Program-made: the position numbers and the translations under genes
From: Gemmata sp.
Lineage (GTDB): Bacteria; Planctomycetota; Planctomycetia; Gemmatales; Gemmataceae
Length of the DNA stretch: 47,279 nucleotides
Assembly (NCBI GenBank): GCA_025055115.1
Contig: JANWYJ010000022.1
Coordinates: 1 to 47,279 of the forward strand
Reading direction: 5' to 3'
Part shown: positions 38,601 to 46,824 of the stretch, piece after piece
Numbering within the stretch: position 1 is the stretch's first letter
Layout of the letters: each line of letters starts with the position of its first letter
Notes under the pieces: generated by a model
What the model was told of the DNA's origin: nothing
Seen by the model: only the letters and a program-made list of their open reading frames with translations
Databases searched by the model: none

Positions 38601-39341
38601 TCACCGACCCACAGCACCGACGGAAGAAGACGTGAAATCGACCCGCACGACTTCCCCGGGCGTCCCCAGGACCTCTCGGGTCATCTCTAGGAGTTGGCCG
38701 CGTTCGATCCAACGGGCCGTGATGGTATATCGATAGGTGGAACCTGCCGCTAAAGGGGGCGATTCGAAGATGCGGTCGGTACCGGTTTGAGTGGTTGGTT
38801 GGCCATCGACGAAGACTTCAGCCGCGGGTTGTGGCACTTTGACCGATAAAATCAAGCATCTGCCGGGGTTGGTAGCTGGTGGGGGGACTCCGGGCATCGG
38901 GGGTAAGGCTTCCACCGTAGGGCGAACGTGGACTGTGGGCGGTTTCGGGCGGGGGGAAGCGGCATACAGGCCGACCCAACCGTAGCCAGCGAATCCGGCA
39001 TGCTGCCGCCACGCCCGCTCCAAGTCAGAGTTTCCCAGTGTGGCTGGAAGGGGGCCGTACGTGGGCACCGGAGGCCCGTAGAGGCTCAGGCCATTGGTCC
39101 AGAAGCTACCGATGGCTCCCGGAAAACCTATCCACGGGGGATAGCCTACGAATGGCCCGCCGGCAAGGCCGTAGTAGCTCCAAGGTGGTGCGACACGGGG
39201 ACCGTTCGGGTAGCCATTATTGAGCCAGCGGCCCCCCCCAGCGCCGGCCAGAATTCCCCCCTCGGCATGACGCAGCCGCTGGGCGTAAACTTCGGGAGCC
39301 AAGACCAGAGCCGCCCCGAGTGCGAGTGCGATTGTTCGCAT
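38601..39341 (-). CDS. TIGR03000 domain secreted protein
   Basis: This 246-residue exported protein starts at ATG 39341 with GGAGG 9 bases upstream. Residues 1-19 are a signal peptide (MRTIALALGAALVLAPEVYA). A Gly/Pro/Tyr-rich region (residues 25-110) follows, then a TIGR03000-type domain (about 165-235): VKVPQPAAEVFVDGQ...YRYTITARWIERGQLLEMTREV...GEVVRVDF. TIGR03000 is restricted to planctomycetes, which supports the taxonomic assignment. The function is unknown. It follows the anti-sigma fusion gene by 97 bases on the same strand and may belong to its regulon. Confidence 0.9.
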   Translation of the reverse strand: MRTIALALGAALVLAPEVYAQRLRHAEGGILAGAGGGRWLNNGYPNGPRVAPPWSYYGLAGGPFVGYPPWIGFPGAIGSFWTNGLSLYGPPVPTYGPLPATLGNSDLERAWRQHAGFAGYGWVGLYAASPRPKPPTVHVRPTVEALPPMPGVPPPATNPGRCLILSVKVPQPAAEVFVDGQPTTQTGTDRIFESPPLAAGSTYRYTITARWIERGQLLEMTREVLGTPGEVVRVDFTSSSVGAVGR

Positions 39342-39438: not shown

Positions 39439-42400
39439 TTAAGGCATGGGCGGCAGTGGCGGAACAATAGTTGCCGGTGGCGTAATTCCTTCCTTGGGGG
39501 CAATCGGTCCGTGTGGTTCAAACTCAGCCTTGGGAGAAGCACTTCGGGGGAGCCGCGTGATGGGCAGCAAGTCGCGGATGGCACCGAGGCGGCCATCCGG
39601 GGTGTGCCCGGCGATGATCAGTTCATAACCGCTCGGAGCTTCGCCGAGATGGAACTGCAGCGTCGCGTGTCCGTTCCCCGGCACAACGATGATGGGTTGC
39701 CAGAGGATGGTGTCGGCCGCCTCGGTGTGCTGGGGCAGAGTTTCGGGTGTTGGTCGCGCTGCGGCATATTCTCGGACCACGAGAGAAGGAGGGGCCTGGA
39801 CTGAGCCGCGAACCTTCTCGACAGCATAGCGTTCGAGGTCGCGCCGATGGGTGGTATCTGCGCGTTCAGGTGTGGATGCTGGGAGATCAGGGGTGAGATA
39901 GCCTTCGATCGGGGCTGTCAGGGCATAGTTGCGCGCGGTGGCTTGTTGGGTGGCGAGGGCTTGGGCTTCGCGTAGGGATCGTTCGTGAATCTGAATCGCG
40001 GCGTGGGGAACTTGTTGCAGGGTTGAGGCCCGAAGCGCATCTTTTCGCGATTCCAGAGTGTTCCGGTCCGGCATCACCGCGGCTGAGCCTAAGGACTTGG
40101 GGTTTGGCATCGTGACACGGGGTGGGGCCACCGGTAGCGGCGCGGTCAGGGCAGCACCGGGGGGGGGTGGATAGGCAGCCATGGTTGCCGGGTTCTGACC
40201 TACAAATCCGGCGGAGTCTCCTGTGCCGAATCGTGGGAGTTGGCTGGCATCCGCCCCAGGACGTGGACCACTGCGCAGTGGCGGTTGAGGCCCGATAACT
40301 GATGTGGGCGGAACTGACGGATGGTGGCCCGAATCGGTAGTTGCCGAAGTGTCGTGTTTGGAACCTTTCTCGTAGGTTTGATTGTGCGACGGCTGGCGAT
40401 CGGTATCAACACCCACTGCGTGGTGAAGTTTCGTCTGGGCGGCGCGTGGGGGTGGGGCGAGTTCTGGTTCGTGGCTGTTTGAAGCCGATAGCCGTTGACC
40501 GAGGTCGTGCGCTGTGGCCATTTCACTTTGGACCCACTGTAGCGCGACGAAGAGAAAAACGCTCAACCCGATGGCCCCAAGACTGCTGAAACCCCACGGC
40601 AGTCGAGCAGTGGGACGCCAGAAACCAGCGCATCCGCACATCAGAGCCAGCGCGGCGAATCCGGCCATGCCCCACCACGCCCGCGCCTGGAATTGTTGCA
40701 CAGGAATCTGGGCGGCCGCGACATCGGCTTGCTTTTGGGCCAACCGTTGCTCGGCGGCCTTCAGGGCTTCGTCGGGTCGTGCAGGAAGAGTTTGTCGGGC
40801 GGCTGCCAGTTGTTCTTGGGCTGTGATGACTGCTTTGGTCGCGGCTTCGTATAGCGGTGCGTACTTTTGGTACAGCTCACGGTGTTTGCGGACTGCCGCC
40901 GGTTCACTGCGGGTGGCGTATTGCCCGTTGTGCACAAGCCATTCCACAACATCAGGATGGGCCAGAGGTTGGAGAGGTTTGCCGCCACGGCCAGCCGGGA
41001 ATGATTGTTCCACAAACCGCCGCCATCCTTGAGTTCCCAAAAGTAAGTCGAGGGCTTCGGCTGCGCTGGGATGGTCGCTGAGGAGGAAGTCGGCGTATTC
41101 AAGTTCATCCGGGCTTTTCACCTCTCCGGCCAGGAGGAAATGGGTGGGGAGGAGCCGATCCTTGGGACCGGGGGTAACTCCCGCATTCACGGCGGCGGCC
41201 CAAAGGACGGCGACGGTGGGCTGACCCTTTTCGTCGGTGGCGGAGATGGCCAGGGACAATGGCGTATGCGGATCGAAGGCCTGGCGCGAATTTTCGGCTG
41301 GGGCCTGAACCACGGTGGCGGAGCTGGTGGCCGTGAAAGCCAGTTTGAGCCATTCCCCCGGCTTGCGATAGACCAAGCGTTCGGCCACTGGTTGGAGGTC
41401 ACGGCGGTCGTCCCGTTCTTCGAATGCGGTGATGCGAACAACGCCACCACGGGGGTCGCGATTGGCCATCAGTTTGACCACTTGCGGTTGCTCACGTTCG
41501 ACGAGTACCCGCTGGGTGTCGCTCAGTTTGCCGCGGGTGTAGGCACCGATGACGATTTGCCGCGCTTGCCCCACGGAGGTTAGCCGCACGCGGATTGGTT
41601 GGCCGGGTGCGGTCACGGGGTCGAGAACAGCCATCGCCAGCCCTTCGGGTTGGGCTTCCGGGAGGGGGAAGCCGCTGTTCCGGGCCACGGCAGCCGGACC
41701 GCCCAGCATCGCCACCGCGGCATGGGGCACCGGGGCGTTCACCATGATCGGGGCATAGATACTGGCGGGCGATTCAAGCTTCAGCCAGACCCGTTGACCC
41801 AGTTGGGGAGTGAAGGTGAACGCTGCCAACCCGCGGCGCGAACCGGGTTGGTCGGGATCATTGAACGAGGTGACATGGGCCAGTGTGCGGCGTCCATCAG
41901 TGATGATACCACGGAAGTTGACAGGGAATCCCGCCGGGGTGGTGGCCCGGACGTAGATTTTCGTTTCGACACCGGCAATCAACGTATCGCCGCATTCGGG
42001 GAAAAACTCTATCAGTACGCGGTTGCCAATCACCGGAACCCGTTCTGTCACCGGCGGATCACCTTCGGGCGTGCGGAAGCTGACCATGACCCGGACATCG
42101 CCATGGGGAACCGCCGCCGGGAGTTGGAAGTGGATTTTGGCCTGCCCCTGGGCATCGGTGTGGGGGGCGATTTGCACGTCGCTGAGCTGCTGGCCATCGA
42201 CTTCAACCCGGCAGGCTTCGATCGCTACACCCGCCATCGGCTGTTCGTGCCGTTGCAGTTGCGCGATCGCTTCCACGACATCTCCGGGGGCATAGGATTC
42301 GCGGTGGAAGAGGATGCGCTTGCGGTAGGTGTCGGGCAGGCCCGAGCGGACTTTGATGGTCCGGGTGACAGGCACGGGGATGGTAGCTGGAAATCCGCCG

Positions 42401-43653
42401 GGGTGCTGGAGTTCGGTCAGTTGGAGTGTGTAGTCACCCTCGGGCAAGTCGACGGGCAGGATGAATTCGCCACAACCAACGCCGCGCACTGGTTGGCCGT
42501 TGGGCAAGCGGACCGGTTCGACGCGCCCGGCGTTATCCACGCGCAGTAAGTCGGTCGTTCCTGTCAGTTGCAGGCCAGGAATGGGCTGGTGGTTGGGGGC
42601 GAGCAATTCATATTTGAGGATTTGTTCGCGCGGGGGTGTTTGGAAGGTGATGCGGTCGAGTGTCAGGGAGCGGAAGAACAAGCGTTCGCCGGGGCGGTAG
42701 ATGGCTTTATCGGTCACCAGCAAAGTGGTGTACACGGGGCCAGCCAGCGGAACCCGTTCTTCGATGGTTCGCGTTTGGGTTTCTTCATCGACTTGGGCGA
42801 CCACCAGGTAGAGTTCGGTTTCGGGTTTGACCTTGGTCCAGGCACTGGCGGGCAACCGCACTGTATGCCGTCGTTCCCCGGTGCGTTCGAGGTTGAGCGG
42901 TTGGGCGTAAATGACCGCATCGGTCGTATCGACGGCATGAATTTCTGCCACAAGACTTTTCCGCGCGCTTTCCCATGCATCGCGGCGATCGTTGACGACG
43001 ACGACGAAATCGTTGGGGGCACCGGGTTGGACCGTGGCGGGTTTGAAGACATCGACCGACAAGCGCCGGGCGGTCACGGTTTCCACAGCGGCTTTTTGCT
43101 CCTTGACCCAGCGATCGAGGATGGCGTGTTGGGTTTGCTGGGCGGTCGTGAGTTTGAATTCGGCCTCGTGTAGGGTTTGCTCCCATTGCGACTGGGATTC
43201 TTGGGCAGCGCGGTGCAGGTCGTCGGTCTCGCGTTGGGCGAACTCGACATCCTGAAGGGCCTGTTGGAACTGTCGGACCAGATTCACCACGGGTAGCACG
43301 GTGCCTGGGATGGCCAACAGTATCGTGGCGGCGACGGCCCAGGGGATCATCGCGGCAACTCGGCGCGTCCGCGCTCGCAGGCCTCCGACGGTCTGGGGAA
43401 GCCCGGCCGGTGCGCTTCGTGCCGGTGTGGTGGTGAGGCTGGGTTCGGGCACTGTGGGCGGCGCGAAGGTGATGTGGGGAAACGCTGACTTCGCGGCTGT
43501 GGCGATCAAGCCCTGCCAGCGCGCCATCGTGGCCCGCTGCGCGGTGCAGGTGGGGCAACCGCTCAGGTGAGCATCGACCGCTGCCTCTTCGTTGGCTTCC
43601 AGCAAGCCATAGAGGTGGTCGAATAACAGGCTTTGACAGTGTTGACAGTTCAT
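39439..43653 (-). CDS. Membrane anti-sigma factor fused to an alpha-2-macroglobulin-like ectodomain
   Basis: This 1404-residue protein starts at ATG 43653. An N-terminal zf-HC2 anti-sigma zinc finger (Cys3/Cys6, His29-x3-Cys33-x2-Cys36) is followed by a membrane segment (about 100-125) and a coiled coil (126-190). Then comes an MG2-type macroglobulin domain (VTDKAIYRPGERLFFRSLTL, about 313-330) and further MG-like beta domains. The block DLLLGTQGWRRF (about 874) is a motif of bacterial MG2 proteins. Two further membrane segments lie at about 988-1033, and a C-terminal strand region (WQPIIVVPGNGHATLQFHLG, about 1314) resembles the start of an A2M domain. The thioester domain (CGEQ/CLEQ) is absent; the GVGCGEF in the MG region is not a thioester site. 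The gene follows the ECF sigma gene by 110 bases. Confidence 0.88.
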   Translation of the reverse strand: MNCQHCQSLLFDHLYGLLEANEEAAVDAHLSGCPTCTAQRATMARWQGLIATAAKSAFPHITFAPPTVPEPSLTTTPARSAPAGLPQTVGGLRARTRRVAAMIPWAVAATILLAIPGTVLPVVNLVRQFQQALQDVEFAQRETDDLHRAAQESQSQWEQTLHEAEFKLTTAQQTQHAILDRWVKEQKAAVETVTARRLSVDVFKPATVQPGAPNDFVVVVNDRRDAWESARKSLVAEIHAVDTTDAVIYAQPLNLERTGERRHTVRLPASAWTKVKPETELYLVVAQVDEETQTRTIEERVPLAGPVYTTLLVTDKAIYRPGERLFFRSLTLDRITFQTPPREQILKYELLAPNHQPIPGLQLTGTTDLLRVDNAGRVEPVRLPNGQPVRGVGCGEFILPVDLPEGDYTLQLTELQHPGGFPATIPVPVTRTIKVRSGLPDTYRKRILFHRESYAPGDVVEAIAQLQRHEQPMAGVAIEACRVEVDGQQLSDVQIAPHTDAQGQAKIHFQLPAAVPHGDVRVMVSFRTPEGDPPVTERVPVIGNRVLIEFFPECGDTLIAGVETKIYVRATTPAGFPVNFRGIITDGRRTLAHVTSFNDPDQPGSRRGLAAFTFTPQLGQRVWLKLESPASIYAPIMVNAPVPHAAVAMLGGPAAVARNSGFPLPEAQPEGLAMAVLDPVTAPGQPIRVRLTSVGQARQIVIGAYTRGKLSDTQRVLVEREQPQVVKLMANRDPRGGVVRITAFEERDDRRDLQPVAERLVYRKPGEWLKLAFTATSSATVVQAPAENSRQAFDPHTPLSLAISATDEKGQPTVAVLWAAAVNAGVTPGPKDRLLPTHFLLAGEVKSPDELEYADFLLSDHPSAAEALDLLLGTQGWRRFVEQSFPAGRGGKPLQPLAHPDVVEWLVHNGQYATRSEPAAVRKHRELYQKYAPLYEAATKAVITAQEQLAAARQTLPARPDEALKAAEQRLAQKQADVAAAQIPVQQFQARAWWGMAGFAALALMCGCAGFWRPTARLPWGFSSLGAIGLSVFLFVALQWVQSEMATAHDLGQRLSASNSHEPELAPPPRAAQTKLHHAVGVDTDRQPSHNQTYEKGSKHDTSATTDSGHHPSVPPTSVIGPQPPLRSGPRPGADASQLPRFGTGDSAGFVGQNPATMAAYPPPPGAALTAPLPVAPPRVTMPNPKSLGSAAVMPDRNTLESRKDALRASTLQQVPHAAIQIHERSLREAQALATQQATARNYALTAPIEGYLTPDLPASTPERADTTHRRDLERYAVEKVRGSVQAPPSLVVREYAAARPTPETLPQHTEAADTILWQPIIVVPGNGHATLQFHLGEAPSGYELIIAGHTPDGRLGAIRDLLPITRLPRSASPKAEFEPHGPIAPKEGITPPATIVPPLPPMP

Positions 43654-43734
43654 CGTGGTCCAGGGTCCGTGCGGCGTGGGCGGGCCGTGGGGCCTGCGTG
43701 CAACCGCGAAATTGGGGTTCACCCGCGGGGGGTG

Positions 43735-43753
43735 GTGTTCGGTGTTTGAACAG
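43735..43753. promoter_or_regulatory. Palindrome site D: GTGTTCG-N5-TGAACAG
   Basis: TGTTC-N7-GAACA arms are intact. It lies in the 110-base gap between the ECF sigma stop (43764) and the anti-sigma start (43653), 82 bases before the latter on the minus strand. This could place a second promoter or processing site there. Confidence 0.45.
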
Positions 43754-43763
43754 CTGGCAAGAG

Positions 43764-44414
43764 CTATTCCGGTGGTTCCTCGGTGGTTGGGGGATTGAGT
43801 ACGCGGCGCAATTTCATGAGGGCGGCGCGCATTTGGGTTTTCACGGTTCCTACCGGGGCGTTGCGGATTTCGGCGATTTGTTCATAGGTCAACTCGCCGT
43901 TTTGCCGCAACAGAAAGACTTCCTTTTCGTCGTGTCGCAGTTGGCTGATGGCTTGTCGGAGGCGGTCGAGGGCTTCTTGGTCTTCGACCGTTTGGCCGGG
44001 GGTTTCATCCCGGGCAGGGAGCATCACATCGTCCTCCGGAAGCGGGCGGCTTTTGCGGTGCCAGGCACTGCGTTGGTAATCTTTGGCCGCATTCAGCCCG
44101 ACGCGGAAAATCCAGGCACGGAGGTTGTGGACCTCCGGGAGGCTCGCACGGGCCCGCCAGCACTTGAGGAAGGCTTCTTGGGCCGCGTCGTGCGCATCGT
44201 CCGCGTTGCCGAGCAAATAGAGGAGGGTGCTGACCAATTCATCCCGGATTTGGTTGAACATCGCGACGAGTAATTCGTCGGGTGTCCGGGGTAGTGGCGG
44301 CGCGCGTTCGCTAGCCCGGCTCGCCTCGGGGGGCGTTCCGGCGGAAGGAGCGACCGGCACCGGATCCGTGCCCGCGTTCGGCCGCACAATCGGTGGCGCG
44401 CCGGATTTGGCCAT
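43764..44414 (-). CDS. ECF sigma factor
   Basis: This 216-residue RNA polymerase sigma factor is of the extracytoplasmic function type. Sigma region 2 (about 55-120) contains LLYLLGNADDAHDAAQEAFLKCWRARA and WIFRVGLNAAKDYQR. Region 4 (about 150-205) contains LRQAISQLRHDEKEVFLLRQ and the helix-turn-helix ELTYEQIAEIRNAPVGTVKTQMRAAL. The N-terminal 45 residues form a Pro/Ala extension. ATG 44414 has a strong AGGAGG, but only 2 bases before the start. A weak promoter-like pair lies upstream on the minus strand, TTGCCC (44524-44519) and TACGAT (44500-44495), spacing 18. It is immediately followed by its anti-sigma/macroglobulin fusion. Confidence 0.94.
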   Translation of the reverse strand: MAKSGAPPIVRPNAGTDPVPVAPSAGTPPEASRASERAPPLPRTPDELLVAMFNQIRDELVSTLLYLLGNADDAHDAAQEAFLKCWRARASLPEVHNLRAWIFRVGLNAAKDYQRSAWHRKSRPLPEDDVMLPARDETPGQTVEDQEALDRLRQAISQLRHDEKEVFLLRQNGELTYEQIAEIRNAPVGTVKTQMRAALMKLRRVLNPPTTEEPPE

Positions 44415-44570
44415 ATCCTCCTACTATGAACGACGACGTTCGGCCCCCAACCGATTGCCGAAATAATGACGAAAAATCGATAGGCTCTCCTCGCATCGTA
44501 GCGATCAACCGACCATCGGGGCAAGCGGAAACAGCCATCGCTGGCCGTGGACGCCAGCGGCTGTTCGTGG

Positions 44571-45605
44571 CTAGCCTTGTGTGGCTTCGCCGTGGGTTAC
44601 GACTTCCTGCCAGCGTTTGCGGACTTGCTCGGGGGTTGCCGTGCCGGTGATGCCGATTTGTTGGATCGTAATCGACGCAATCAGATTGCCGAAAGCGGCG
44701 GCTTGTTCGTAACTGGCACCGCTGACGATGGCACAGGCGATGCCCGCCGCGCAACTGTCGCCCGCTCCGCAAATGTCGACCGGCCCTGGGACGGAGTAAG
44801 CGGGTATGCGCCGGGGAGCAGGGGGAGTCATTCCTGGGTAGAAAAGATGGATTCCCGTAGCACCGGCGGTGGCAAAAATCGCCCGGTAGTGGCGTGTGGC
44901 GTCGATCAGCGCGGCGGGGAAGGCGGCTGTGGGGGATGATTCGCGGAGCTGTTCGGCCTCGGCCTGGTTGGGTTTGATGCACATATTCTGAAACAACGCG
45001 ATGCGTTGGCGGCTATCGGCTAGGACGAACTTATCCGGGTCCTGTTTCGCGAACGTGGTGAGCCGTTCACGGACGCGCTGGGTCACGACGCCGCTATCGT
45101 CCTCGCGCACTTGATCGACTACTAAGAGGGCGTCGAGTTGTGGCCACACCCCGATGAGATGGTCAATAATAGCATCTTCAATGGCCCCCGGTGTGGGAGT
45201 ACGGTTCTTGATGTCGAGGCGGTTGAGTTCCTCGCGTCCCAGCATCGGTTTGGTGTAGGTGGGGGTGCGTCGGTGGGGTGTGGTCACGATGCCGCGCAGT
45301 TCGACCGCAGCCAATTGCGCCAAGGCGCGGCGCAATTCGTAGCCCTCTCCGTCGTCGCCGATCAAGCTGATGGTGGCGATGCGACCCACGCCCAATGCAG
45401 CCAGGTTATTGATGACCGTGCCAGCGGCCCCAGGATAATTGCGAACCTGTGTGACTTGGTAGGCGGTTAACCCCGTCTCGATCGAGGGTTCGTTCAACGC
45501 CGGATCGATATCCAGATAGCGATCGAGAAACAGATCACCCAACACTCCAATAGTCCGTTGGGGAAGGGTGTTCAAAATGTGTTCAATCAGTTCCGAGGTG
45601 AGCAT
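44571..45605 (-). CDS. PfkB family carbohydrate kinase
   Basis: This protein of about 344 residues is a ribokinase/PfkB-family kinase. The N-terminus GVLGDLFLDRYLDID has the substrate-binding Asp pattern, YPGAAGTVINNLAALGVG is the glycine-rich substrate lid region, and GPVDICGAGDSCAAGIACAI is the PfkB signature 2 with the anion hole GAGD. Order and length resemble the HldE/RfaE kinase domain that phosphorylates heptose-7-phosphate, but no nucleotidyltransferase domain is fused and the substrate is not fixed by sequence. ATG 45605 was chosen because GGAG lies 7 bases upstream; 31 further in-frame codons upstream lack a site. Confidence 0.9.
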   Translation of the reverse strand: MLTSELIEHILNTLPQRTIGVLGDLFLDRYLDIDPALNEPSIETGLTAYQVTQVRNYPGAAGTVINNLAALGVGRIATISLIGDDGEGYELRRALAQLAAVELRGIVTTPHRRTPTYTKPMLGREELNRLDIKNRTPTPGAIEDAIIDHLIGVWPQLDALLVVDQVREDDSGVVTQRVRERLTTFAKQDPDKFVLADSRQRIALFQNMCIKPNQAEAEQLRESSPTAAFPAALIDATRHYRAIFATAGATGIHLFYPGMTPPAPRRIPAYSVPGPVDICGAGDSCAAGIACAIVSGASYEQAAAFGNLIASITIQQIGITGTATPEQVRKRWQEVVTHGEATQG

Positions 45606-45688
45606 GCCCAGGCTCCAGGTCAGCCGAAACAACCGTCCGACCGACAGGATGATACCGACGCGATGGCGGTAGCGGTACGGTTGCTGTG

Positions 45689-45769
45689 TTCCCATCATCC
45701 CTCATTCCCGTCATCCCTCATTCCCCTCATCCCTCGCGTTTAGTTCATATGTGTTCCCGTCATCCCCTA
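45689..45769. repeat. 16-bp tandem triplication plus a dispersed copy
   Basis: Units 45689-45704, 45705-45720 and 45721-45736 follow the pattern ttccc(a/g/c)tcatccctc(a/g). A fourth copy lies at 45754-45769 after an 18-base gap. They lie upstream of the PfkB gene. Confidence 0.92.
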
Positions 45770-45831
45770 CTAGCGTATTGCCGGTATGATGCCGGCATGG
45801 TGAATCGAGCTGCTTTTTGGGCAAGTGTGTT

Positions 45832-46824
45832 CTAGGCCATGCTCGTCTTTGGCGGCACGTTTCCACTGTCGGCGTTCACCGCGGCACGCCACAACGCTGG
45901 GACGGTGAGTTGATGGTCGCCTTGAATGTAGAAGCTCTCCCCCCCATCGGCGACCGTGCGAACCAGGATTGTCTTCCACGGCCGGTAGTAGTAGCGAGGG
46001 TCCGTTTTGGGGGCTTGGGTGTGGTAGTCGTCGCCGAGGGGGATGAGGTCGAACACCGCGGTGGTGAAATGAGCAATCCGTTGGCCACGTTGGTGCGCGA
46101 CGTTCCGGGCCATGGCGAGGGCTTTCAGGTAAACTTCCGGACCCATCACGGCTGTCCCAAAGTTGAGGACTACGCCTCCTTCTAATTGTTTGAGATGTTC
46201 GGCGAAAATGAGAAAATCGGTGTAGCTGGCGCGACCCAACACAGCGCCATCGGCGTTGGGGTGTTCATGGATAATGTCGTAGCCAATGCCAATGTGGACC
46301 GTCACCGGCACGCGCAGGCGATAGGCCGCGGCCAAGACACTGGCGTGCTTGTAGGGGAAAAACCCTTCGGCAATGGCTCGGCCGATACTTTCTCCCAAAC
46401 CCATCCCGTCGCGGACCCCGCGGGTGATTGCGTCGTTCATCCGCCCGGTTTCTTCCCACAGGCCAAACTCACCGCTCGAAACGTATCTTGCGACACTCTC
46501 AGTACTTGCGCCAATCAGCGCGAATTCCCAATCGTGGATGGGGCCAGCCCCATTCATGGCCAATAGGGAAATCAAACCGCGTTCCATCAGATCGATCAGA
46601 TGCCGCTGACAGCCCGCGCGGAGAACATGCGCTCCCATCATCAGAACCCGAGCCGCGCCGCGGGCTTTCGCAGCGGCTAAGCGTTGACCCAAAACCGGGA
46701 TATGGGGATGCTCAAAACGGACTGGCGCTTCGAGCGATTGCAGAATGTCCAACGTGAGATCGTGGGTCCGCTGCGCCAGCGGTTGGAGCCGAAGTTGGGA
46801 GCGGTCGAACTGCGGATAGGGCAT
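45832..46824 (-). CDS. Deoxyhypusine-synthase-like protein
   Basis: This 330-residue protein resembles the deoxyhypusine synthase fold: RHLIDLMERGLISLLAMNG with AGPIHDWEFALIGASTESV and GEFGLWEETGRMNDAI match the family blocks for the NAD and spermidine region, and VTVHIGIGYDIIHEHPNADG follows. In eukaryotic/archaeal enzymes the catalytic Lys lies in a GGVVKHH-like block; here the equivalent reads GGVVLNFGTAV without Lys. Bacteria lack eIF5A, so the substrate and reaction are unknown. ATG 46824 is chosen (GGGA 8 bases upstream). Palindrome site E is 43 bases upstream of the start. Confidence 0.72.
   Translation of the reverse strand: MPYPQFDRSQLRLQPLAQRTHDLTLDILQSLEAPVRFEHPHIPVLGQRLAAAKARGAARVLMMGAHVLRAGCQRHLIDLMERGLISLLAMNGAGPIHDWEFALIGASTESVARYVSSGEFGLWEETGRMNDAITRGVRDGMGLGESIGRAIAEGFFPYKHASVLAAAYRLRVPVTVHIGIGYDIIHEHPNADGAVLGRASYTDFLIFAEHLKQLEGGVVLNFGTAVMGPEVYLKALAMARNVAHQRGQRIAHFTTAVFDLIPLGDDYHTQAPKTDPRYYYRPWKTILVRTVADGGESFYIQGDHQLTVPALWRAAVNADSGNVPPKTSMA

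What the first reader, a model, noticed from the sequence alone, without database searches (positions are those of the whole stretch)
39439..44414. ECF sigma factor paired with an anti-sigma factor fused to a macroglobulin-like ectodomain
The predicted anti-sigma factor is one 1404-residue chain: zf-HC2 zinc finger, membrane segment, coiled coil, MG2 and further macroglobulin-type domains, a TQGWRRF block, two more membrane segments and an A2M-like C-terminus. Bacterial alpha-2-macroglobulins trap proteases through a thioester; this protein has no thioester domain. A sensor that releases the sigma factor when an exported protease or other ligand meets the macroglobulin part is a plausible model. 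Planctomycete anti-sigma factors are often fused to other domains, but this combination is not one I know as characterised. The TIGR03000 gene just downstream may be part of the output.
Basis: partly seen in the sequence, partly recalled or inferred. Interest (0 to 1): 0.75.

Follow-up and report, generated by a model that had tools for sequence, protein, structure and literature searches.

The report
Macroglobulin-headed anti-sigma factor controlling protease inhibitors
In these planctomycete bacteria a protein resembling our blood's protease-trapping alpha-2-macroglobulin sits in the membrane, joined to a switch that probably holds a gene regulator, and that regulator's likely start signal also precedes genes for exported protease inhibitors, so the cell may sense protease attack and answer it.

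Summary
Confirmed and extended. The window encodes an ECF sigma factor and a 1404-residue zf-HC2 anti-sigma factor whose outer part is an alpha-2-macroglobulin (A2M) ring (AlphaFold; Z about 20 to E. coli A2M and human C3). Of 81 loci studied, 64 (window included) have the anti-sigma domain; all 64 have the same sigma type within 630 nt upstream, and 36 carry a GCFEQ thioester motif. The window's clade has lost the thioester arm (MG9/CUB/TED/C-terminal MG). A membrane hairpin and a disordered Pro-rich stretch sit where A2Ms carry their bait. Before the sigma gene lies CAATC-N17-CGTC (window 44432-44457). It precedes an exported serpin in the window's genome, 17 of 90 family serpins exactly (39 with up to one mismatch; 0 and 11 of 124 other ORFs), and 9 of 11 sigma-less A2Ms, but 0 of 11 other ECF genes. 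Best reading: an envelope-protease sensor whose sigma factor switches on protease inhibitors. Shown by computation: anatomy, linkage, shared promoter. Inferred: sigma binding, bait cleavage as trigger, the release step. There is no experiment; three likely papers were not readable, so prior mention is possible.

The parts
44432..44457 (-). Predicted ECF promoter CAATC-N17-CGTC (-35 44453-44457, -10 44432-44435), 17 nt before the sigma start codon
   Evidence: Exact in 38 of 64 sigma upstream regions; most frequent pair of that form in three shuffles 6; located
43764..44414 (-). ECF sigma factor, 216 aa
   Evidence: Pfam Sigma70_r2 and r4_2; orthologue at E below 1e-50 in 39 of 41 genomes of the order
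39439..43653 (-). Anti-sigma factor with macroglobulin ectodomain, 1404 aa
43474..43653 (-). Anti-sigma domain, residues 1-60: zinc motif CxxC...HxxxCxxC, three helices, pLDDT above 90 over residues 1-50
   Evidence: Pfam zf-HC2, alignment, model
43282..43344 (-). First membrane segment, about residues 104-124
   Evidence: hydropathy
43069..43299 (-). Helical stalk, residues 119-195, joining the membrane segment to the first MG domain
   Evidence: AlphaFold model m47dbdf9d5fac, pLDDT 93-98 over residues 131-190
41179..43062 (-). Ring of macroglobulin domains, residues 198-825, with MG2 at 311-412
   Evidence: Pfam; model m155719b4fd32 and structure search
41014..41034 (-). TQGWRRF block, residues 874-880; Q-G-W-R and F invariant in both alignments
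40540..40674 (-). Membrane hairpin inside the bait-region position, about residues 994-1038, short Arg-bearing loop
   Evidence: Hairpin in 79 of 81 proteins that could be scored (4 of 85 dropped); loops hold 224 R/K and 33 D/E
40018..40530 (-). Disordered Pro/Ala-rich stretch, residues 1042-1212, at the place of the A2M bait; bait-like by position only
   Evidence: pLDDT 32-44 over most of it; homology to human A2M resumes after it
39559..39786 (-). Post-bait macroglobulin (PF00207-like) domain, residues 1290-1365, last folded part; MG9-CUB-TED-CTMG absent
   Evidence: pLDDT 83-95 in 6 of 8 ten-residue blocks; structural match ends at ECAM residue 1021
38601..39341 (-). TIGR03000-domain protein, conserved third gene
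   Evidence: NCBIfam 58 bits; a BLAST homologue follows within 1.5 kb in 19 of 19 loci of the window's clade whose contig goes on downstream, window included

Best explanation
The operon is a transmembrane signalling device that most likely senses proteolytic attack on the cell envelope. The zinc-binding anti-sigma domain in the cytoplasm holds the ECF sigma factor. A helical stalk joins it through the membrane to a macroglobulin ring outside, whose bait position carries a membrane hairpin and an exposed disordered stretch. A protease that cuts the exposed stretch (or binds the ring) changes the ring or leaves the anti-sigma factor open to further proteolysis, the sigma factor is freed, and it transcribes from CAATC-N17-CGTC its own operon, an exported serpin and, in relatives, a stand-alone macroglobulin. 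Many relatives are sensor and trap in one chain; the window's lineage keeps the sensor part only. Shown by computation: anatomy, pairing with one sigma group, shared promoter. Inferred: sigma binding, bait cleavage as trigger, the release step, protection as purpose.
For: Fold: MG ring with Z 20.2 to E. coli A2M 4rtd and 19.4 to C3 8oq3; sequence homology to human A2M at two places. Pairing: 64 of 64 anti-sigma-domain loci, window included, have the same sigma type upstream, 57 of them within 180 nt, the rest up to 628 nt; 5 of 5 Pirellulales-type loci too. Thioester domain in relatives: TED_complement E 1.8e-18 to 6.5e-35 in five long relatives, one of them without the anti-sigma domain; GCFEQ in 36 of 64. 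Regulon: the sigma promoter precedes serpins exactly in 17 of 90 and with at most one mismatch in 39 of 90, against 0 and 11 of 124 other ORFs; other spacers of 8-29 reach at most 3 exact and 14, permuted words at most 3 exact and 18. It precedes 9 of 11 A2Ms that lack sigma and anti-sigma domain, 5 exactly and 4 with one mismatch, and 0 of 11 other ECF genes. The window genome's serpin has a twin-arginine-type start and, as recalled for inhibitory serpins, the hinge EEGTEAAAAT.
Against: No experiment. No protease or cleavage site is identified. In 27 of 56 serpin-bearing genomes examined no serpin examined has the site, 30 of 95 genomes have no serpin match, and both serpins found in one Pirellulales-type genome lack it, the other four genomes having none. 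Two of 11 sigma-less A2Ms lack it. In a sister family the outer part has shrunk to about 800 residues in 4 of 7 genomes, two of them with no recognisable MG2, so the ring is not indispensable to the switch there. A near-identical permutation of the degenerate word, sharing most bases, reached 23 of 90. The bait assignment rests on position, and the promoter-sigma link on co-occurrence.
Confidence: 0.6

Rival explanations
1. The same sigma/anti-sigma switch, but the macroglobulin ring is a binding module for some other envelope signal (cell-wall damage, misfolded protein, a small ligand), and serpins are one part of a broad envelope-stress regulon.
For: The thioester is repeatedly lost: at least 3 losses of the domain on the tree and 3 proteins with the cysteine changed. 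The ring itself shrinks in a sister family. Another candidate target conserved in the window's genome and its nearest relative is an exported-looking protein of no known family.
Against: Two unrelated kinds of protease inhibitor, serpin and A2M, carry the promoter, and the bait position is kept in the window's clade.
Confidence: 0.22
3. The serpin and stand-alone A2M promoters belong to another regulator with a similar motif; the operon's sensor is unconnected with protease inhibition.
For: The motif is short; binding was not tested.
Against: Motif absent from 11 other ECF upstream regions and exact in 0 of 7 TIGR02989-type A2M operons; the spacer peaks at 17 in both sets.
Confidence: 0.06

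Closest known systems
Class I (zf-HC2/ASD) membrane anti-sigma factors with ECF partner
   Same: zinc anti-sigma domain, membrane segment, gene just after the ECF gene, ECF-like promoter before the pair
   Different: ectodomain is an alpha-2-macroglobulin ring; three membrane segments
B. subtilis RsiV/sigmaV, anti-sigma as lysozyme receptor (PMC4183432, abstract and outline seen)
   Same: logic: the anti-sigma factor itself meets the attacking enzyme; that the sigmaV regulon resists it is recalled
   Different: different ectodomain; enzyme here thought to be a protease; regulon of protease inhibitors; no experiment
Type I bacterial A2M (E. coli YfhM/ECAM, Salmonella A2M)
   Same: MG ring, bait position, in many relatives the CxEQ thioester domain
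   Different: ECAM is membrane-anchored and its gene accompanies PBP1c (PMC4498604, passages); here an anti-sigma domain, a membrane hairpin in the bait position, and in the window no MG9-CUB-TED-CTMG
Type II A2M (P. aeruginosa MagD)
   Same: no thioester motif
   Different: MagD has a 74-kDa part after the bait and lies in the six-gene mag operon (PMC5764988, passages); here a short post-bait end and a sigma/TIGR03000 operon

Membership tests
Class I anti-sigma factor (zf-HC2) | anti-sigma domain with HxxxCxxC | tested here: met
   zf-HC2 30.4 bits over 22.2; C3, H29, C33, C36 invariant in 15 aligned, C6 in at least 90%
Class I anti-sigma factor (zf-HC2) | cognate ECF gene adjacent | tested here: met
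   64 of 64 loci with the domain, window included
Class I anti-sigma factor (zf-HC2) | domain binds and inhibits the sigma factor | not testable with these tools
Alpha-2-macroglobulin superfamily | ring of MG domains with MG2 | tested here: met
   Pfam MG2; Z 20.2 to 4rtd
Alpha-2-macroglobulin superfamily | bait region cleavable by proteases | tested here: inconclusive
   disordered stretch at the bait position; cleavage untested
Type I (thioester) A2M | TED with CxEQ thioester | tested here: not met
   absent from the window protein and genome; GCFEQ in 36 of 64 paired loci
Type I (thioester) A2M | MG9, CUB and C-terminal MG arm | tested here: not met
   chain ends soon after the post-bait domain, whose match ends at ECAM residue 1021
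Type II A2M (MagD) | six-gene mag operon | tested here: not met
   neighbours in the operon are sigma and TIGR03000 genes; single mag genes were not searched for
RsiV-like lysozyme receptor | RsiV ectodomain | not tested
   only the logic is compared; Pfam reported no other ectodomain family over its cut-off

The most novel reading that the evidence does not exclude
A bacterial humoral-defence-like circuit: a complement/A2M-type protein works as a receptor for protease attack, the cutting of its membrane-tethered bait fires a dedicated sigma factor, and the answer is a second line of two unrelated protease inhibitors, exported serpins and free macroglobulins with thioesters. The A2M was recruited again with other ECF types (TIGR02989 and a third kind), and in the window's genus the receptor and the trap were divided between duplicated genes.
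Probability: 0.5. Interest if true: 0.92.

Novelty: new variant of a known kind. Interest (0 to 1): 0.82.

Why it matters
Bacterial macroglobulins are puzzling relatives of complement, thought of as protease traps. A family in which they head an anti-sigma factor would make them receptors, and would give a testable answer to what free-living bacteria use serpins and macroglobulins for. It also supplies a sensor, a likely cognate sigma factor, a promoter and target genes, with relatives of the sensor in named strains (Limnoglobus roseus PX52, Zavarzinella formosa DSM 19928).

Tried and rejected
Rejected: that the window protein is a decayed gene. The TED-less clade is one branch of 21 rows (three of them cut by contig ends or misread) with support 100, and its members share length and synteny. 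Rejected: that the fusion is unique. Weakened: a simple trap-only role, as the window genome has no TED match.

Led nowhere: counting the fusion across class and phylum with long queries (searches gave no answer). The one-sequence search of PDB sequences found nothing credible; the profile did. The search with the N-terminal model was filled mostly by macroglobulin and other non-sigma hits, so the anti-sigma fold rests on Pfam and the model. Genome-wide counts of the promoter word say little: of the 27 sites in the window's genome, all looked at, many lie inside ORFs, and the reversed-word control is not composition-fair. Agreement of -35 variants between sigma and serpin within one genome was looked at by eye and was not tight. 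A2M loci with a third sigma-like type (L070, L143), L106 and L109 (no sigma, no site) and L165 (N-terminus unclear, left out of the 11) were not pursued.

Errors mended: one search read minus-strand serpin loci in the wrong orientation and was replaced, where 9 of 30 loci were not parsed; four serpin windows (L255, L256, L273, L275) were misplaced near contig ends, corrected. L257 has hardly any upstream DNA and stays in the denominator. The first count of sigma-less A2Ms with the site was 5 of 7; a recount added L136, L151, L152 and L168, all with it, giving 9 of 11; L136, L151 and L152 end before the thioester region. Serpins were chosen as a test class after seeing one in the window's genome; without that genome and its nearest relative the counts are 15 exact and 37 with up to one mismatch of 88. 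The 90 serpin windows are part of 125 matches counted from the table. The 64 sigma regions are the set on which the motif was found. The 124 control windows belong to ORFs of 200 aa or more chosen mechanically, not all of them genes. Related genomes are not independent, so the p values are guides.

Not readable here: Jogler 2012, Casas-Pastor 2021 and Budd 2004, recalled as places where such a fusion or a planctomycete A2M might already be listed.
Full report
WHAT IS IN THE WINDOW. Read on the minus strand there are three genes: an ECF sigma factor (43764-44414, 216 aa), a 1404-aa anti-sigma factor (39439-43653) and a TIGR03000 protein (38601-39341). Pfam finds zf-HC2 and MG2 in the anti-sigma factor over their curated cut-offs and no other family over its cut-off. 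The window is contig 47 of a 4.93-Mb assembly, 98.1% complete, which has one match to this protein and none to the thioester domain TED_complement at E 0.001.

STRUCTURE. AlphaFold was run on residues 206-1404 with an alignment of 59 sequences and on residues 1-420 with 49, all from the window or the named-genome scan. The anti-sigma domain is three helices, confident over residues 1-50; after the membrane segment a helix (119-195) runs to the first MG domain. The rest is a chain of MG domains, mostly at pLDDT 80-97. Then come helices with a membrane hairpin, a stretch of about 170 residues with pLDDT mostly 32-44, a helix pair and one last beta domain with 6 of 8 blocks at 83-95. Foldseek ranks C3, C4, C5, TEP1, CD109 and A2M chains on top; VIA-align gives Z 20.2 for E. 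coli A2M 4rtd over its residues 385-1021 and Z 19.4 for C3 8oq3 up to residue 829. By sequence, a profile of the family matches human A2M twice, around MG2 and in the ETWIW region, which as recalled follows the bait. In E. coli A2M the unresolved part of the bait is Arg923-Leu942, and the arm that moves to trap is TED, CUB, CTMG and MG9 (PMC4498604, passages). So the hairpin and disordered stretch fill the bait position, and the chain stops before that arm. The hairpin is found in 79 of 81 proteins that could be scored (4 of 85 dropped), with R/K far in excess of D/E in the loops (224 to 33), as expected if the loop is cytoplasmic. The bait reading is by position only.

RELATIVES. Matches occur in 92 of 95 genomes of the family. 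I fetched 80 loci from 70 genomes and tabulated them with the window. Of the 81, 64 have an anti-sigma domain by a profile built here from them, and all 64 have a P0002-like sigma gene upstream, 57 within 180 nt and the rest up to 628 nt; 43 of 81 show the full CxxC...HxxxCxxC. Two more (L050, L054) have the sigma but no anti-sigma domain in the ORF as called. Of the 64, 36 carry GCFEQ. Five long relatives (1800-2260 aa) were scanned: all have A2M (PF00207) and TED_complement over cut-off and a weak bMG10 hit, four of five MG2 over cut-off; one of the five, L048, is a sigma-less copy. The 28 without GCFEQ include contig-cut proteins, three with a TED but a changed cysteine (GGLEQ, GPFEQ, GNFEQ), two TED-less proteins elsewhere in the tree (L077, L097) and the window's clade. 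That clade is one branch of 21 rows, support 100; the whole domain was lost at least three times on a quick tree (long branches such as L077 are uncertain).

The remaining 15 loci lack the anti-sigma domain and keep GCFEQ. Seven have another ECF type next to or overlapping them; two of these sigmas were tested and pass the cut-off of TIGR02989, the Rhodopirellula/Verrucomicrobium family. One has a third, weaker sigma-like gene. Four are cut at contig ends, and three show no sigma. The second copies nest inside the main family, so macroglobulins seem to have come under ECF control more than once. In the window's genus 17 of 19 genomes have a TED match, one of them (G015) only a weak one; the window's and its nearest relative's have none.

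A named-genome scan (best 80 of 312 kept) places the system in Gemmata sp. IIL30, Limnoglobus roseus PX52 and Zavarzinella formosa DSM 19928, and in a deep group of five loci: two labelled Pirellulales, Roseimaritima sediminicola JC651 (Pirellulales as recalled) and two with broader labels. All five have the sigma gene and GCFEQ and a zincless version of the anti-sigma domain (profile E about 4e-4 or better). The sigma is a discrete orthologue: of 41 genomes of the order, 39 have a hit below 1e-50, G079 one cut by a contig end (6e-31) and G021 only weak ones; all other listed hits are at 1e-24 or weaker, and two genomes (G063, G066) have two copies. In the sister family (7 genomes) an anti-sigma-type protein follows in 7 of 7, in L346 with zf-HC2 at 21.2 bits, just under the cut-off. 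Three are recognisable A2Ms by BLAST; four are 792-863 aa, two with MG2 and two without. The outer part is plastic while the switch is constant.

PROMOTER AND TARGETS. In 64 sigma upstream regions (of 66) the pair CAATC-N17-CGTC is exact in 38; the commonest pair of that form in three shuffles reaches 6. With [ACG]AA[AT]C for the first half it is in 51 of 64, and the five Pirellulales-type regions show it by eye. The window has it exactly, 17 nt before the sigma start. In the window's genome one of the 27 sites of the longer word CAATC-N16-TCGTC lies 49-50 nt before a 410-aa serpin (E 4.4e-118) with a twin-arginine-type start (Pfam TAT_signal below cut-off) and the sequence EEGTEAAAAT, recalled as the hinge of inhibitory serpins; it is kept in the nearest relative. 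I then tested serpins as a class: 90 upstream windows from 56 genomes. Exact site 17 of 90, up to one mismatch 39 of 90, degenerate form 34 of 90; 124 windows before other ORFs give 0, 11 and 2; the antisense strand gives 1, 9 and 2 of 90. Other spacers from 8 to 29 give at most 3 exact and 14 with one mismatch; 359 permuted words at most 3 exact and 18. For the degenerate form the next of 720 permutations is a near-identical word with 23 of 90, then 10 (before four windows were corrected). Without the window's genome and its nearest relative, Fisher p is 9e-7 for exact and 3e-12 for the degenerate form. Positive serpins occur in 29 of 56 genomes and 14 of 26 genera, and 31 of 34 sites lie 110-215 nt before the serpin domain, as expected for a promoter ahead of a signal peptide. 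Eleven distinct A2M loci without sigma and anti-sigma domain had enough upstream DNA: 5 have the exact site, 4 one mismatch (CAAAC), 2 none (L106, L109); three of the nine end before the thioester region. By record or genome handle, six of the nine lie in the same assembly as a TED-less sensor of the window's clade. Seven operons with the TIGR02989-type sigma have no exact site. Eleven non-cognate ECF upstream regions have none, while 6 of 7 sister-family sigma genes have the degenerate form. Against the reading: 27 of 56 serpin-bearing genomes show no site before the serpins examined, and the two serpins of one Pirellulales-type genome show none.

HOW IT PROBABLY WORKS. The anatomy, the constant pairing and the promoter are results. 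From established knowledge of zf-HC2 anti-sigma factors I infer that residues 1-60 hold the sigma factor in the cytoplasm. From A2M biochemistry I infer that an envelope protease cuts the exposed stretch or binds the ring. The signal could pass by the stalk, or by making the anti-sigma factor a substrate for stepwise proteolysis, as in RsiV (PMC4183432, abstract). The targets, two unrelated protease inhibitors, are what makes protease the favoured stimulus. The TIGR03000 gene follows in 19 of 19 loci of the window's clade whose contig goes on; its role is unknown.

NOVELTY. A search for macroglobulin with planctomycetes and sigma factor found 0 papers; with anti-sigma factor 3, none about this by title and start of abstract; mixed terms listed none about it by title. 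The word macroglobulin does not occur in PMC7406223, PMC4598750 and PMC8103513 nor in PMC8567305. Three likely papers could not be read, so a listing there is not excluded. I call it a new variant: the ECF/anti-sigma kind is known, the macroglobulin receptor with an inhibitor regulon is, to my knowledge, not.

Noticed in passing
L103, L104, L105, L107, L108, L110, L049: Second thioester A2Ms of the same genera are paired with a different ECF gene (TIGR02989 type in the two tested); at least L103, L107 and L110 begin with another short helical-looking domain that recalls FecR-type planctomycete anti-sigma N-termini (recalled, not tested).
   Followed up: partly
L341, L342, L345, L346: In the sister family the macroglobulin anti-sigma factor has shrunk to about 800 residues; two have no recognisable MG2 while keeping the zinc domain and a terminal hydrophobic pair.
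   Followed up: partly
L223:1156-1857 (-) (window genome contig 28) and L246: An exported-looking protein of no known family with a CAATC-N17-CGTC site just upstream in the window's genome and its nearest relative; a similar protein follows it in tandem. Possible further regulon member.
   Followed up: partly
L074, L080, L094: A2Ms with a thioester domain but the thioester cysteine replaced (GGLEQ, GPFEQ, GNFEQ).
   Followed up: no
window 44571-46824: Upstream of the operon on the same strand lie a PfkB-like sugar kinase and a deoxyhypusine-synthase-like gene (named from recall of the sequence, no call).
   Followed up: no
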